Origin: Candidatus Hodarchaeota archaeon | Lineage (GTDB): Archaea > Asgardarchaeota > Heimdallarchaeia > Hodarchaeales > YT1-057 | Direction: 5' to 3' | DNA: 6,074 nt | Assembly: GCA_016839955.1 (NCBI GenBank) | Contig: JAEOTI010000656.1 | Coordinates: 1 to 6,074, forward strand | Shown here: piece after piece, positions 1 to 6,074 of the stretch | How the letters are laid out: every line of letters begins with the position of its first letter | Position numbering within the stretch: the first letter of the stretch is position 1 | Translations under genes and position numbers: made by a program | The notes under the pieces: model-generated | Database searches by the model: none | What the model was told of the DNA's origin: nothing | Seen by the model: the letters and a program-made list of their open reading frames with translations, nothing else

Positions 1-2846
1 ATTGTGTTATTGTCTCCAGTAATAATATCAACAATTTCACTACTAACATTTGGATCTTGCTGAATTGAGAATGATAGAGAAACGTATGCTGTGTTCCCTA
101 TAGAATCATTTCCATAAATATGGAGAGTGTAAGCTCCATTTTCTAAGTCTGTTTCTTGTGTTAATACCGTCCAGCTGACATTAACATGTCCTGAAGGACC
201 TTCAAGGTTATACCAATAATGAACTGCATCTCCAGAGAGTAGAATATCTACAACGGGAAATGCATAAGTTGTATTATACGGATCAAGGATAGAGATATTG
301 GGAGGAGTTGTATCTATGGTGAAATAGATGAAATCACTAATCTCATTGCCAGCAGAATCATTTCCATAGACATAGAATGTATAATGTCCATCATTCAGAT
401 CCGTTTCATTGTATAGGCCTGTCCAACTAATATTTCCATGCCCTGAGGGTCCAATTAGATAGAACCAATAATTATCCTCAAGATCTCCAACTAGATCTAT
501 TATTATTGTCGAAGAACTATAAGTAATGTTCAAAGGGGAGACTATTGTTAACAGCGGAGGAGTTGTATCAATAGTAAAGACTATTTGTGATATTCCTTCA
601 TTTCCATTTGAATCATTTCCATACGCATAGAGAGTATAAATGCCATCCTCTAAATTATCCTCGACGATAGTACCTGTCCAGCTCGTATTCCCATGCCCAC
701 TGGTACCTTCTAAACTATACCAGTAATGATCAGCTCCCCCTGATAAGACGATAGTGATTGAGTCATCAGTATAGGTTGTATTTAATGGGCTATTAATCAC
801 AATTGAGGGAGGAGTCGAATCATCAACATAGACAAAAATAGAATCGTTGTTGAATTGCCCACCCCGATCATAGACGATGAGAGTATAATTATATGTTCCA
901 ATTTTAAGCCCATCAATGTTCAAACTGATAGAATTTCCATCCCAACTTTGAGTTGTGTTAAGACTATCGTTTAAGTAAATATAGTACCAATACGGGTTAG
1001 CATCAGAAGCATTCCAAATAATCCAGTTATTTGTTGTATCATATTCATAATCCATGAAATCAAGAAGTTCGATTATAGGGGCATCTGTTTCCGACCCTGG
1101 AGGTAACATTAATGGATGATGGTCTTTTACTGATGAAAAGATTGTATAGTTCTCATCCCCCAATCCATCATGGTTATTATCTGGGCCAGTATAATCATCC
1201 CACCAATTACCATGTGTACCATTATCCCATTGATTATTTAAATTATCATCATAGCCGTGTCCAAGCCCATTCGTCCTAAATGTGTTGTACCAAACGTTAC
1301 AAAATATACTATCTGAATCTAATTCAATCCCATAGGCACTATTATTTTCCAGAATATTATTTGAAAGATTACAATATTCTGTAACTAAAAGGTAAATTCC
1401 TTTACTATTGTTGTAGATCAAGTTGTCTGTAATATTATTATAGGATGAGGGATTCCAAAACATACCATCCCCCTCAAGATGGATACCATCAGAACAAAAG
1501 CTTATGTTATTGTTCACAAAGGTGTTTCTATCTGCTGAAGTAGTCAATCCATATTTACAATCATATATTATATTGTTAAAAATGGTGGAATTTTCGGTAA
1601 TTGTTATCAAAATTCCGTCCCATGTAACATTATAAACCAGATTATTTGACACCGTTGAATTATGAGAAAAATCTAAGACGTAAATACCCTGGGAAACGTT
1701 CCAAACAGTATTATATGATAACGTATTATTTTCACCACTATCAACACGAATCGCTCCAAAACTTGATTTGATAGAGAATACCTTGTTTTCTTTCAAGATA
1801 TTGTCATGTGCAAATGAAAGGAAAAGAGCTCCAATTCCAGCTACATCGGTGATAGTATTGTTTAGAATGTCGCATTTATCACTTTGAACCAAATAGAGAC
1901 CTTCTTCTTCAGTTCCATTTATTAAATTGTCTCTAATTGTGTTATTGTCTGAATACTCTGCTTTAATTCCACAACTACCTGAATCATGTATTGAATTATT
2001 AAGTAAAAAATTATTTTGGGAATTTTGCAATTCGATTCCATATGAGCAATTAGTAAAATTATTGTTTTCAATGATACAGTTATTTGCATGCTGTAAGTAT
2101 AAAGCAAAGTTGTTGTAGGAAAAAGAACAGTTAATTATTTGAGAATCATTTGTATTTAGCCAAATACCACTTTCTTCAAAATAATCAAAACCTGCATAAT
2201 AGAATCGGCTATTATATAATTTTACTAAACTGGTTGAATTTGCTATTAGATACCAAGCATTCGAAGAATTACTCGGACAAACGCTTGAATTAGCTATTAT
2301 ATTCAATTCAGAAGATTCATTCACCTCAATTCGAAATTCACCATCAGAACTACAATTTATCCACAAAGTAACATTTTGTAAAGTAAGATTTCCAGAATTT
2401 GTAACAATTAAATTACCATTCAGAGTTATATTTTCATCCCAGACTACTGTCTGACTATCAACGATCCAATCGCCGGTTCCTGAATAAGAGGAGTCCTCAC
2501 CACTTCCGTCTGTTAATTGCGGTAAAGGTCTAGGCGTTCTAGACTGTGTGTTTGGTTGTTCCACTAGATTTTCAATAAATACAAAACTATTAACATTCTT
2601 TTCACTTAACTCTGTCATCAATCCATCAGAATTTTTTGATTTGATGTCTTCCAGATATTCTAGTTGCGCTAGACTTGTTTTATCAAATGGAGAAACAATA
2701 TTCTCTTCATTGTCATTATTTAGGTAGAAAGTGTGATTAAAAGCAACAAAACTAAGACTAAATGTCACGAATAGGAAGAAATAGTTTCTACATAATGTAA
2801 TCTTCGGTCTTTTAGTAAATAAAATAGAAAAAAATCCTTGATCCAA
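1..2846 (-). CDS. Large secreted/surface beta-helix protein with Ig-like repeats (C-terminus beyond window)
   Basis: This is a probable cell-surface or secreted protein, 948 codons in the window with no stop and with its C-terminus off the left edge. Residues 12-21 are basic and 22-36 form a hydrophobic segment (YFFLFVTFSLSFVAF), which fits a signal peptide or membrane anchor. Residues 42-120 form a polar linker. Residues about 126-190 are a beta-rich entry segment, and about 190-545 are Asn-rich right-handed beta-helix coils with recurrent NN.I/N.F steps. GNWWDDY...DGLGD follows at 546-564, typical of NosD/CASH-like proteins. From 589 there is a divergent Ig-like domain, then three homologous Ig-like repeats (677-929). 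At least 17 N-x-S/T sequons lie between 589 and 948, which suits an extracellular glycoprotein. The start is TTG: an in-frame TAG lies seven codons upstream, there is no ATG between, and a GAGGAG ribosome binding site sits 6 nt before it. The ligand or substrate is unknown. Adhesion or polysaccharide binding is inference, and catalysis is not shown. Confidence 0.9.
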   Translation of the reverse strand, partial: MDQGFFSILFTKRPKITLCRNYFFLFVTFSLSFVAFNHTFYLNNDNEENIVSPFDKTSLAQLEYLEDIKSKNSDGLMTELSEKNVNSFVFIENLVEQPNTQSRTPRPLPQLTDGSGEDSSYSGTGDWIVDSQTVVWDENITLNGNLIVTNSGNLTLQNVTLWINCSSDGEFRIEVNESSELNIIANSSVCPSNSSNAWYLIANSTSLVKLYNSRFYYAGFDYFEESGIWLNTNDSQIINCSFSYNNFALYLQHANNCIIENNNFTNCSYGIELQNSQNNFLLNNSIHDSGSCGIKAEYSDNNTIRDNLINGTEEEGLYLVQSDKCDILNNTITDVAGIGALFLSFAHDNILKENKVFSIKSSFGAIRVDSGENNTLSYNTVWNVSQGIYVLDFSHNSTVSNNLVYNVTWDGILITITENSTIFNNIIYDCKYGLTTSADRNTFVNNNISFCSDGIHLEGDGMFWNPSSYNNITDNLIYNNSKGIYLLVTEYCNLSNNILENNSAYGIELDSDSIFCNVWYNTFRTNGLGHGYDDNLNNQWDNGTHGNWWDDYTGPDNNHDGLGDENYTIFSSVKDHHPLMLPPGSETDAPIIELLDFMDYEYDTTNNWIIWNASDANPYWYYIYLNDSLNTTQSWDGNSISLNIDGLKIGTYNYTLIVYDRGGQFNNDSIFVYVDDSTPPSIVINSPLNTTYTDDSITIVLSGGADHYWYSLEGTSGHGNTSWTGTIVEDNLEDGIYTLYAYGNDSNGNEGISQIVFTIDTTPPLLTIVSPLNITYSSSTIIIDLVGDLEDNYWFYLIGPSGHGNISWTGLYNETDLNDGHYTFYVYGNDSAGNEISDFIYFTIDTTPPNISILDPYNTTYAFPVVDILLSGDAVHYWYNLEGPSGHVNVSWTVLTQETDLENGAYTLHIYGNDSIGNTAYVSLSFSIQQDPNVSSEIVDIITGDNNT
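60..311 (-). repeat. Ig-like tandem repeat 3 (84 codons)
   Basis: This segment encodes residues 846-929 of the surface protein. It opens with TTPPNISI and carries the shared core HYWYNLEGPSGH, then YGNDSIGN near its end. It keeps the same 14-nt block (plus-strand GAATCATTTCCATA, 103-116) found in the other two copies. It ends in SFSIQQ rather than the FTID that precedes the TTPP of a next unit, so it is probably the last repeat of this type before the unseen C-terminus. Confidence 0.85.
312..566 (-). repeat. Ig-like tandem repeat 2 (85 codons)
   Basis: This segment encodes residues 761-845. It opens with TTPPLLTIVSP and shares NYWFYLIGPSGHGNISWTG and YGNDSAGN with its neighbours. The conserved 14-nt block lies at 355-368, which is 252 bp from the copy in repeat 3 and 255 bp from the copy in repeat 1. 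The unit is one codon longer than the flanking ones. Confidence 0.85.
567..818 (-). repeat. Ig-like tandem repeat 1 (84 codons)
   Basis: This segment encodes residues 677-760. It opens with STPPSIVINSP, contains HYWYSLEGTSGHGNTSWTG and YGNDSNGN, and ends in FTID. The conserved 14-nt block lies at 610-623. The domain before it (residues 589-676) has the same general beta pattern, including YDRGG and a terminal FVYVDD. It lacks the TPP opening and the SGH core, so it is a diverged relative rather than a fourth copy. Confidence 0.85.
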
Positions 2847-3005: not shown

Positions 3006-4760
3006 CTAATCTAGGACGACTTCGAACAGACAGTGGTTGTGTCCTGTGGAATGACATTCTATCTCTTTCACTCTTACATCCTCATCAAGTAGAAGATCCA
3101 ATCTACCATGAATGAAACCTGCAGTAAAATCACATAAGGGAATTTTTTCCTCTTCTTTCTCTTGACCATGAATATCCACAAGGGGTTGTTGAAGACTCCC
3201 GCTACCAGAGGCTGTGGCGCATTCCATGATTTTTACATGGGCAGTCTCGTCATCAATGAACTTAACATAAACATTACCGTGGTTTCTTTGAAGTATAGTA
3301 CGAGGGTCATTGAAATAAGCTTCAAGAACCTTTATTCCGTCCTCAAAATCAAGGGGGAGTTTGTAAGGAGAATCTTCCTGAAATAGAATAGATTGTAACA
3401 CAACTTTGTCGACTCCTAGACGACCATAGTGGGCACCTGCATAATAGAGGAGAGTCGAATTAAAGGGATCTGCAAATTTTAAACCGTTAAGAACTTGTTG
3501 TAAAACTGTTATATGAACGTAATCACCTACACCTGGTCGAAGAACTCGTTGCATGAGTACACTTTCGTAGGTATTTTGTGAGATAGTACTCAAACAATTC
3601 TCAAACATTTCAGATCGTTTTTCAGACATGAATTCTTTATCGTCTTCACTAGCGATTTCAAAAGATGATTCTTCCCCTAGTTTTAATTCAAATTCACAGA
3701 ATTCATCCCCTAATCCCCAGCAAGCGGTCTCTTTTACAGAACATTGTTCTCCTAATTGCGTTTCAACCATCCCAGCGATATCCCCCGCAGTAAAATTACA
3801 GAGAGGGGTCTGTATATCAACTGCATGAGTAGAAATTGCGGATCCATAAATACGGATCGTTGCTGATCTCGTACCAGAACGCATTACTTTTGCGCCTGAT
3901 GAAAGGAAGGTTGGGAATAAATCCTTAGTTGCATCATACATCTTTCCAAGACCAGTTACTATTTCACGAAACCGTTTGCTTGGTTCAAATTGGTCGAAAA
4001 TTCTAGGATTGTATTCGAATAATTTTGTTTGAGTAGCCCCAAAACGACCCATTAAATTACCAGCTCGGTAAATGTATCTAATTGAAGATGCACTGATTGA
4101 CATCATACTCGTCACAATAGCTTGAAGAACGCCGATATGCACATAATCCCCAATTGCAGGGCGAATCATATCACCTTCTTCGTCAATCGCCTTTAATGCA
4201 TTAGAGGAAATTTGTAACATGTTATTCTTCATATTTGCCGGTAAATCTCGTTCTTCCCGATCTACACGAGCTTCTATAAGGGCATTAAATAAATGGTTAA
4301 ATACTTCAGCTCCCGATCCTGCAAATATTGATCCAAATCCTTCTCCTTGGTCTTCCATTCCTCCTGAGTCAAATGATAAAACATCAGGAGCACCCATTGT
4401 AGTCGTTGATCCTGCATCAAATCCCATCATCTCAGCAAGTGCTCCAGAAGAACCAGAGCTTCCAAGGAGTTCTGACGCTTCACTTGCAGAGAGAACAGTT
4501 TTATTGTCAATCAAAACTTCTGGAACATTTACAATTCCATATTTATCTCGTAAAGCAGGGTGCTTTTCAGTATCAATTTGCAAAAAGTTGATGTGGAAGG
4601 ACCCAGCAGTATCTAGAATCTTATCAAGATGCTTTTTCACGATTTTACAAGGAGCACAATCCTTTCCCATGAATAAGACAATGGAAATTGCCTCATCTGT
4701 GGAACTACTCAACCTTAATTCTACTCCGATTTTTAGATGACCGAATAACACATTTTTCAA
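3006..4760 (-). CDS. Thioredoxin-like domain fused to two tandem V4R domains
   Basis: This is a 584-residue soluble protein with no signal peptide or membrane segment, so cytoplasmic. Residues about 22-100 form a thioredoxin-like domain with the redox motif CAPC (35-38) and the probable cis-proline loop NVPE (P80). Residues 101-150 are a Gly/Ser-rich flexible linker. Two homologous V4R modules follow, about 199-361 and 408-584. Both have RP..GDYVHI.VLQ, an AG...GR.G helix and a C-terminal PLC[ND]FTAG...C...C block. The cysteines are C321/C347/C355 and C543/C569/C577, with identical 26- and 8-residue spacing. V4R domains are known as small-molecule-binding, probably metal-binding sensor domains related to TRAPP Bet3. 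A redox-linked sensor or regulator is inference, as no DNA-binding or output domain is visible. The start is uncertain: the TTG at 4760 directly follows an in-frame TAA and lacks a ribosome binding site. GTG at 4751 or TTG at 4712 (residue 17, GGAG 11 nt upstream) are alternatives that keep every domain. Confidence 0.9.
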   Translation of the reverse strand: MKNVLFGHLKIGVELRLSSSTDEAISIVLFMGKDCAPCKIVKKHLDKILDTAGSFHINFLQIDTEKHPALRDKYGIVNVPEVLIDNKTVLSASEASELLGSSGSSGALAEMMGFDAGSTTTMGAPDVLSFDSGGMEDQGEGFGSIFAGSGAEVFNHLFNALIEARVDREERDLPANMKNNMLQISSNALKAIDEEGDMIRPAIGDYVHIGVLQAIVTSMMSISASSIRYIYRAGNLMGRFGATQTKLFEYNPRIFDQFEPSKRFREIVTGLGKMYDATKDLFPTFLSSGAKVMRSGTRSATIRIYGSAISTHAVDIQTPLCNFTAGDIAGMVETQLGEQCSVKETACWGLGDEFCEFELKLGEESSFEIASEDDKEFMSEKRSEMFENCLSTISQNTYESVLMQRVLRPGVGDYVHITVLQQVLNGLKFADPFNSTLLYYAGAHYGRLGVDKVVLQSILFQEDSPYKLPLDFEDGIKVLEAYFNDPRTILQRNHGNVYVKFIDDETAHVKIMECATASGSGSLQQPLVDIHGQEKEEEKIPLCDFTAGFIHGRLDLLLDEDVRVKEIECHSTGHNHCLFEVVLD

Positions 4761-4976: not shown

Positions 4977-6074
4977 ATGACAATTCGAACCGAACAGATT
5001 TTCCTCCCACCTAGTCCTGTTATTGGTAAGGCATGTCATTCTGCAAATAATTTATACAATGAAGGAAATTACCGTGTTCGACAGGAGTTCATTAATAATG
5101 GTAGTTGGATTCGCTATAACCAACTCTATCATCAATTGAAGGACTCTCAGAACTATCGAGCGTTACCTGCCCAATCCAGCCAACAACTTCTTAGACTCCT
5201 CGACAAAAATTGGAAAGTCTTCTTCAAAGCTATCAAAGACTGGAAAAAACATCCCGAAAAGTATCAAGGGCGACCAAAACTTCCAAACTATTGCAAAAAG
5301 AACGGGGAATACTTGTTACTGTTCACCAATCAGCAAGTCACAATAAAAGAGGGCGTGCTCCGACTTCCCAAAAAATTAGGGCAAATTAAGACTCATCTCA
5401 CTCAAAAACTCCGAGGTGCACGACTTCTCCCCCAAGGGACAGGCTAATTACTCGAAATCCTTTATGAAAAACTTGACGTTCAATTACGACCACACAAGAA
5501 CAGAATTGCAAGCATTGATCTAGGTCTTAACAATCTTATAACTATGGTCAATAACATTGGTGGACCCCCGATTGTTATTAATGGTAAGAGTGTCAAAGCC
5601 CTGAATCAATATTTCAATAAACGAAAGAGTCGTTTACAAAGTATTTATGATAAAATAGGAGTAAAAAATAGTAAAAAACAACAACGAATGTTCTTAAAAA
5701 GAAAGAAGCAGATAAAAGATCGTCTACACAAAGCGAGTCGTTTTGTGATCGATTGGTGTATTAAAAATAACATCGACACCTTGGTAGTAGGCTACAACCA
5801 AACATGGAAGCAACACATCAACATTGGTAAAAGGAACAACCAACATTTCGTTAACATACCGTTTTTCATGTTAATAACTCAATTGGAATACAAATGTGAA
5901 GATGATGGTCTTAATTTCATTACAATAGATGAAAACTACACATCCAAGTGTTCCTTCCTCGACAACGAACCACTACAGAAACATTCTAAGTATCTAGGGA
6001 GACGGATTAAGAGAGGTCTGTTTCAATCTTCTACTGGAAAACTAATCAACGCATACTTAAACGGAGCGTACAAC
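4977..6074 (+). pseudogene. tnpB: IS605/IS1341-type TnpB, interrupted by an in-frame TAA and catalytically damaged (C-terminus beyond window)
   Basis: This is a TnpB (OrfB) RNA-guided nuclease of an IS200/IS605-family element, with no tnpA in the window. The ATG start has GAGGT 9 nt upstream. The first 156 codons give the N-terminal part (NNLYN, VRQEFINNG, GRPKLP, FTNQQV). Codon 157 is TAA at 5445-5447. The same frame then continues without another stop to the window edge (codon 366) with LEILYEK, RuvC-I SIDLGLNNL (D181), GYNQTWKQ (272-279), GKRNNQHF, DENYTSKCSF (E319) and INAYLNGAYN. Relatives usually read GYxxEIxYEK at the break, so TAA most simply replaces a Tyr codon. In INAYLNGAYN, Tyr360 stands where the family normally has the RuvC-III aspartate (NADxNGAYN). 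The downstream half has no start codon or ribosome binding site near the break. Two independent lesions argue for a decaying copy. The element's right end and any guide RNA lie outside the window. Confidence 0.88.

What the first reader, a model, noticed from the sequence alone, without database searches (positions are those of the whole stretch)
3006..4760. Thioredoxin domain fused to a duplicated V4R sensor
One polypeptide joins a CAPC thioredoxin-like domain, a flexible Gly/Ser linker and two V4R domains. V4R is usually seen alone or joined to DNA-binding or signalling output domains. Here the only partner is a dithiol redox domain, so the protein may pass redox state to, or read it from, the Cys clusters of the V4R modules. 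This architecture may be undescribed.
Basis: partly seen in the sequence, partly recalled or inferred. Interest (0 to 1): 0.7.

Follow-up and report, generated by a model that had tools for sequence, protein, structure and literature searches.

The report
Thioredoxin joined to twin V4R sensors
An Asgard archaeal protein family joins a small redox enzyme (thioredoxin) to two copies of a ligand-sensing domain related to a eukaryotic vesicle-tethering protein, and its active-site cysteines hardly ever vary, which suggests a redox-linked sensor that seems not to have been studied.

Summary
The minus-strand gene at 3006-4760 encodes a thioredoxin domain (CAPC plus cis-Pro), a disordered Gly/Ser linker and two complete V4R units; the start is probably TTG 4712. 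Pfam, a 63-sequence AlphaFold2 model and structure alignment agree.

It is no chance fusion. 61 of 227 genomes of the same (Asgard) phylum hold the family, and 57 of these show Trx and a V4R core in one frame; the other four are cut or split at contig ends. No fusion was found outside the phylum in the sets searched. All 69 aligned full-length, partly redundant members keep CxxC, cis-Pro and the first V4R's C/E/C/C. The long Gly/Ser linker is specific to the window's subfamily.

The V4R "Cys clusters" are the usual V4R zinc-site pattern (spacing as in DmpR and MsvR; present in Trx-less V4Rs; Asp at one position in 23 of 69 second V4Rs). They are no evidence for Trx-to-V4R thiol transfer, though the Trx system does reduce MsvR.

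In one subgroup (9 of 9 genomes) a peroxiredoxin gene follows directly, and a closely related Trx sits in a PAS-HATPase protein. Best reading: a cytosolic redox-linked sensor. Activity, ligand and partner are untested; no paper found describes it.

The parts
3006..4712 (-). Trx-V4R-V4R gene with the preferred start (TTG at 4712, about 568 aa); the longest ORF begins at TTG 4760
   Evidence: P0004 (MSSPEDDEAVSIVLF) and P0002 begin at the residue matching codon 17; GGAG 11 nt upstream
4458..4691 (-). Thioredoxin-fold domain, residues 24-101
4647..4658 (-). Active-site motif CAPC (C35, C38); cis-Pro P80 lies further on in the domain
   Evidence: C35, C38 and P80 conserved in 69 of 69
4311..4457 (-). 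Gly/Ser-rich linker, residues 102-150, predicted disordered
   Evidence: pLDDT under 50 over 105-147; long only in the window's subfamily
3669..4310 (-). V4R unit 1, residues 151-364 (N-terminal helices plus V4R core); C321, E344, C347, C355
3009..3647 (-). V4R unit 2, residues 372-584; C543, E566, C569, C577
   Evidence: second PF02830 stretch; PoxR aligned at all four residues (E 0.014); first position C 44, D 23, E 1, G 1 of 69

Best explanation
A cytosolic redox-linked sensor. A catalytically competent, thioredoxin-type dithiol domain is tethered to two V4R units that pair with each other inside one chain, as PoxR and TRAPPC3 subunits pair between chains. Each V4R unit holds a structural zinc at a C/E/C/C (or D/E/C/C) site and a hydrophobic ligand pocket. 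The Trx exchanges electrons with other proteins: peroxiredoxin in at least one subgroup, probably the cell's Trx reductase elsewhere. The ligand state of the V4R pair and the redox state of the Trx influence each other by domain contact. Shown by computation: the domains, the conserved active-site and zinc-site residues, the fixed architecture, and the peroxiredoxin linkage in one subgroup. Inferred: redox activity, zinc, ligand binding, intrachain pairing, and the coupling between Trx and V4R.
For: CxxC and cis-Pro in 69 of 69 full-length members, while the XX dipeptide varies. V4R1 C/E/C/C in 69 of 69; V4R2 [CD]/E/C/C in 67 of 69. Cys spacing 26 and 8 in the window equals the DmpR zinc cysteines C151/C177/C185 and MsvR C206/C232/C240; PoxR aligns residue for residue at the V4R2 site. 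Complete V4R folds with N-terminal helices in both units. V4R and TRAPPC3 proteins are dimers with hydrophobic-ligand cavities and a zinc site (passages). A peroxiredoxin lies directly downstream on the same strand in 9 of 9 genomes G055-G063, each of which has only 6-8 AhpC-TSA matches in 2.3-4.1 Mb. A Trx of the same kind, with CVYC, is built into a PAS/HATPase protein in the same 9 genomes (Pfam in one; frame and CVYC in all nine).
Against: The peroxiredoxin linkage is seen in one subgroup only. Other lineages have different neighbours: DHDPS and a LeuA-like enzyme, roadblock or Ras-like genes, or what looks by eye like a chaperonin gene. The window has a surface-type protein and a TnpB. 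Zinc and ligand are inferred from homology. Two of 69 members have lost V4R2 site residues (P0008, P0022). No Trx-V4R contact could be measured, because model coordinates and PAE were not available.
Confidence: 0.5

Rival explanations
1. MsvR in cis: the Trx dithiol directly reduces or oxidises V4R cysteines, which act as a zinc-thiolate redox switch.
For: In Methanosarcina acetivorans the Trx system reduces MsvR, whose V4R cysteines C206/C232/C240 (same spacing) affect redox-dependent DNA binding. V4R1 cysteines are invariant in 69 of 69. A fusion of two proteins known to interact in trans is a classic functional hint.
Against: The same C/E/C/C set occurs in 17 of 18 V4R ORFs without N-terminal Trx found here (the motif search itself required the last two Cys), so it is no adaptation to the Trx. 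V4R2 replaces its first Cys by Asp in 23 of 69 members with CxxC intact. In DmpR the Cys at the same spacing hold zinc.
Confidence: 0.25
2. A plain Trx reductant anchored by V4R: the V4R pair only localises or dimerises the Trx, for example to a membrane lipid or a protein partner, with no sensing.
For: Relatives of the fold bind palmitate and sit in tethering complexes; the Trx is the only domain with known chemistry.
Against: Strong conservation in both V4R units, including R200, D205, H208 and R408 in 69 of 69, suggests more than a handle. In other V4R proteins of these genomes the partner looks by eye like a DNA-binding or KaiC-type domain.
Confidence: 0.13
3. The Trx domain is a sensing or docking domain without oxidoreductase turnover, as KaiB-like Trx folds are in some kinases (recalled).
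For: The same Trx type occurs inside a PAS/HATPase protein.
Against: CxxC and cis-Pro are invariant in 69 of 69 and CVYC is kept in all 9 PAS/HATPase proteins, which a pure docking domain would not need.
Confidence: 0.07

Closest known systems
MsvR (V4R transcription regulator of methanogens)
   Same: V4R core with three Cys at identical spacing; redox-responsive and reducible by thioredoxin
   Different: MsvR has a DNA-binding domain and one V4R; this has Trx and two V4Rs, no HTH match, and 60.6 bits against an MsvR cut-off of 220
DmpR/PoxR/MopR phenol-sensor V4R domains
   Different: DmpR links one V4R to an AAA+ ATPase and a DNA-binding domain and dimerises between chains
Asgard and eukaryotic TRAPPC3/Bet3
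   Different: no Trx in the solved subunits; no TRAPP Pfam match in this protein
Thioredoxin / small archaeal Trx
   Same: fold, CxxC, cis-Pro
   Different: in this family joined to tandem V4R; the NCBIfam Trx models score below their cut-offs

Membership tests
V4R (PF02830) | Pfam score over curated cut-off | tested here: met
   104.1 bits against 31, two stretches
V4R (PF02830) | V4R/TRAPPC3-type fold | tested here: met
V4R (PF02830) | C/E/C/C zinc-site residues | tested here: met
   C321 E344 C347 C355 and C543 E566 C569 C577; Cys spacing as DmpR. The DmpR paper prints Glu172, 5 before C177; here the Glu is 3 before, as in the PoxR alignment
V4R (PF02830) | bound zinc and hydrophobic ligand | not testable with these tools
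   needs protein
Thioredoxin | Trx fold with CxxC and cis-Pro | tested here: met
Thioredoxin | NCBIfam equivalog cut-off (TIGR01068, classical Trx) | tested here: not met
   25.1 bits against 96.8, so it is Trx-like by domain, not a classical Trx equivalog
Thioredoxin | NADPH/Trx-reductase dependent disulfide reduction | not testable with these tools
   needs enzyme assay
MsvR | NCBIfam MsvR cut-off | tested here: not met
   60.6 bits against 220
MsvR | N-terminal helix-turn-helix | tested here: not met
   N-terminus is Trx; no HTH Pfam match at E up to 1
TRAPPC3/Bet3 | TRAPP family sequence match | tested here: not met
   only V4R and Trx/glutaredoxin-type families in Pfam at E up to 1, though the fold is shared

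The most novel reading that the evidence does not exclude
An Asgard peroxide-signalling relay: peroxiredoxin oxidises the fused Trx, whose redox state sets the shape and ligand affinity of a TRAPP-like twin V4R module. This would be a redox-gated ligand sensor or tether without any DNA-binding domain, old within the archaeal phylum nearest to eukaryotes, and one of at least two uses of a shared 'sensor thioredoxin' module that is also found inside PAS/HATPase proteins.
Probability: 0.2. Interest if true: 0.75.

Novelty: new variant of a known kind. Interest (0 to 1): 0.5.

Why it matters
V4R is the likely prokaryotic relative of the TRAPP subunit Bet3, and outside phenol sensors and MsvR its function is little known. 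A conserved covalent link between V4R and an intact thioredoxin site in Asgard archaea makes a direct test possible: does redox state control V4R ligand binding or partner choice? It also gives a possible link between peroxide metabolism and TRAPP-like folds in the lineage closest to eukaryotes.

Tried and rejected
Trx-less homologues: P0023 (448 aa, Pfam V4R only) begins inside the longer ORF of L010, which carries CPPC, so it is most likely a start-codon call. P0048, P0051, P0052 and P0054 (V4R only in Pfam) begin inside the Trx domain and keep its second half; P0032 begins within the CxxC motif. P0055-P0058 hold the Trx and are short (200-297 aa) without a V4R motif; I take them as fragments, untested. 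P0059 is KaiC plus V4R without Trx. In one search four of 61 genomes (G032, G046, G054, G072) lack Trx and V4R core in one frame: G046, G054 and G072 pieces end at contig edges, and G032 begins 37 bases from one.

Sequence search of V4R1 alone against the PDB gave only MJ1460 at E 1.5. V4R2 alone gave MJ1460 0.0085 and PoxR 0.014 and weaker chance-like rows. These are weak alone, so the fold evidence carries the case.

Fusion outside the phylum: 392 relatives of G001 (up to 3 candidates per genome scored, E 1e-15) and a Trx+V4R1 profile against the protein collection gave no fusion outside. Genomes numbered above G227 matched by V4R alone or Trx alone. I take these as outside the phylum because one search gave G001-G227 as the whole phylum. 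Each protein search scored only about 8,000 candidates, and more distant phyla were not searched.

Roadblock or Ras-like GTPase genes near some members: such genes are common in Asgard (recalled), no chance test was done, so I draw nothing from them. Reach of CAPC to the V4R cysteines: not measurable, no coordinates given. The paper that reports the MsvR-Trx experiment is not held; I rely on a passage of the review. Recalled and from no call: KaiB-like Trx folds in kinases; that the phylum of G001 is the Asgard phylum (its record is titled Heimdallarchaeota).

Full report
What is there. The minus-strand ORF 3006-4760 (584 aa, TTG start) matches Pfam Thioredoxin at residues 23-86 and V4R twice. 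The start is probably the TTG at 4712: two close relatives (P0002, P0004) begin at that residue, a GGAG precedes it by 11 nt, and I see nothing like a ribosome site before the TTG at 4760. The public record of this protein has 581 aa, a third choice. The protein shows no hydrophobic leader, so it is most likely cytosolic (read from the sequence).

Distribution. The protein collection gave 23 relatives, the window's own included (the same 23 with a broader profile), and 42 with a Trx+V4R1 profile, fragments and one KaiC-V4R protein included. Those that carry an organism name are Heimdallarchaeota, Hodarchaeales or Hodarchaeota, Kariarchaeaceae or Promethearchaeota; most carry none. A scan of GTDB genomes gave 21 loci, all titled Heimdallarchaeota, Hodarchaeota or Hodarchaeum. 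In the phylum of G001, 61 of 227 genomes hold a match at E below 1e-50 (counted from the listing). With a broader profile, 57 of these 61 show Trx and a V4R core in one open frame; the other four are split or cut at or near contig ends. Genomes numbered above G227, which I take as outside the phylum, match by V4R alone or Trx alone. No intact Trx-less member was found: the database proteins of the family without a Trx label either begin inside the Trx domain (P0048, P0051, P0052, P0054) or begin inside a longer ORF that has it (P0023).

Conservation. I aligned 75 different sequences and excluded 6 fragments; P0001 (the window itself) and P0023 were left out beforehand, and proteins P0024-P0059, found later, are not in this count. 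In the remaining 69, which are related and partly near-identical, C35, C38 and P80 are kept in 69 of 69. C321, E344, C347 and C355 are kept in 69 of 69. In V4R2, position 543 is C 44, D 23, E 1, G 1, while E566, C569 and C577 are each kept in 68 of 69. The two residues inside CxxC vary (AP, AA, AT, AV, PP, FA, YA, VY, GP, KW and others). The stretch from residue 92 to 200 is 104-120 aa in the window and P0002-P0008, 61-93 aa in a wider group, and 50-53 aa in the remaining full-length members, so a flexible tether is not a shared feature.

What the V4R cysteines are. Their spacing in the window (26 and 8) equals MsvR C206/C232/C240 (passages of PMC3729527) and the DmpR zinc cysteines C151/C177/C185 (passages of PMC7264223). 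PoxR aligns at C543, E566, C569 and C577. Of the 30 loci returned for Pfam V4R in 13 genomes, 12 hold members of this family. Of the other 18, 17 gave 18 ORFs with the motif, from 8 genomes, judged by eye to lack an N-terminal Trx; 17 have C/E/C/C and one G/E/C/C. One locus (L126, below Pfam's cut-off) gave none. The motif search required the last two Cys, so only the first two positions are informative. The cluster is thus a general V4R zinc-site pattern. The change of the first ligand to Asp in 23 of 69 V4R2 units fits metal binding and argues against that Cys as a needed redox partner. In some later-found members the spacing in V4R1 differs (the strict motif is missed, for example P0048 and P0051), though the Cys remain by eye. 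In its favour, oxidised MsvR is reduced by the M. acetivorans Trx system (passage of the review PMC7278568), and V4R Cys variants of MsvR change its redox-dependent DNA binding.

Context. I looked at 60 family ORFs on 60 loci, some of them the same place fetched twice; the 30 short-flank loci L022-L051 were left out and many flanks are cut by contig ends. In genomes G055-G063 a peroxiredoxin of the AhpC-TSA family follows directly on the same strand in 9 of 9 (two scanned by Pfam; all nine found by the family search; positions). In one of these (G062, L076) the reading frame holds a stop. A profile of these peroxiredoxins found none in the other loci examined. These genomes have 6-8 AhpC-TSA matches each in 2.3-4.1 Mb, so chance adjacency is unlikely, but the linkage may be a single event. 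The three members of this group in the tree form one clade (SH-aLRT 100, quick method, several long branches elsewhere). The other groups have other neighbours. The window itself has a beta-helix surface-type protein downstream and an interrupted OrfB/TnpB on the other strand, which tells nothing about function.

A related protein. The same 9 genomes encode a protein with a family-like Trx (66.3 bits in one) together with two PAS stretches and a histidine-kinase-type ATPase domain (Pfam of one of the nine; that the Trx lies between the PAS domains is read from the sequence printed). CVYC is kept in all nine frames, one of them cut at a contig end. The Trx module is therefore used in at least two sensor-like architectures, which supports a signalling role.

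Mechanism. Best reading: a working Trx dithiol tied to a zinc-holding, intrachain V4R pair that binds a hydrophobic ligand, with redox and ligand state influencing each other. V4R proteins are thought to bind hydrophobic ligands and signal in cis or trans (passage of PMC2253512), and Asgard TRAPPC3 is a zinc-holding dimer with cavities (passages of PMC10933270). Shown: domains, conservation, distribution, one operon-like linkage. Inferred: activity, zinc, ligand, pairing, coupling.

Novelty. Paper searches for V4R with thioredoxin, Asgard, archaea, fusion or Heimdallarchaeota, for MsvR with thioredoxin, and for Trx-domain kinases in Asgard (open-licence PMC only) found no paper that describes this fusion in its title, start of abstract or the passages I read. 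Passages were read of PMC10933270, PMC7278568, PMC3729527, PMC2253512, PMC7264223 and PMC5847659; the other listed papers were seen as listings only. PMC5847659 does mention response regulators with thioredoxin reductase in Heimdallarchaeota and a V4R-like domain in methanogens, not this fusion. Database entries that have a name are called 'V4R domain-containing protein', 'thioredoxin family protein' or 'predicted hydrocarbon binding protein', two of the last kind with a second domain in the name (glutaredoxin, KaiC). V4R and Trx are both known, so this is a new variant of a known kind of sensor.

Noticed in passing
L070:3240-5246 (-) and L092-L099 (genomes G055-G063): Trx domain with CVYC inside a PAS/HATPase protein in 9 of 9 genomes; by eye, in the sequences printed, the stretch where an H-box would be expected lacks a clear His, so it may not be an ordinary histidine kinase.
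   Followed up: partly
L100:1666-3321 (+): A stand-alone 82-aa Trx with CNWC follows 9 nt after a gene that looks like a KaiC/RecA-type ATPase (by eye, not scanned).
   Followed up: no
window 4977-6074 (+): IS605-type OrfB/TnpB: two same-frame ORFs separated by stop codon(s), the second matching OrfB_IS605 in Pfam and running off the window; probably a decayed insertion sequence.
   Followed up: no
window 3-2846 (-): Gene for a beta-helix (NosD-like) protein with repeated Ig-like domains, probably a surface protein; runs off the window.
   Followed up: no
L102 and L116: V4R preceded by what looks by eye like a roadblock/LC7 domain in genomes outside the G001-G227 set; the fusion of two folds found in eukaryotic trafficking complexes may deserve a look.
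   Followed up: no
P0059: KaiC-type ATPase joined to V4R (Pfam PF06745 and PF02830), another V4R architecture.
   Followed up: no
L001:9331-9735 (-); L063:6966-7529 (-); L065:7507-8082 (+): Roadblock/LC7 or Ras-like GTPase genes lie next to or close to some family members in two subgroups; not tested against chance.
   Followed up: partly
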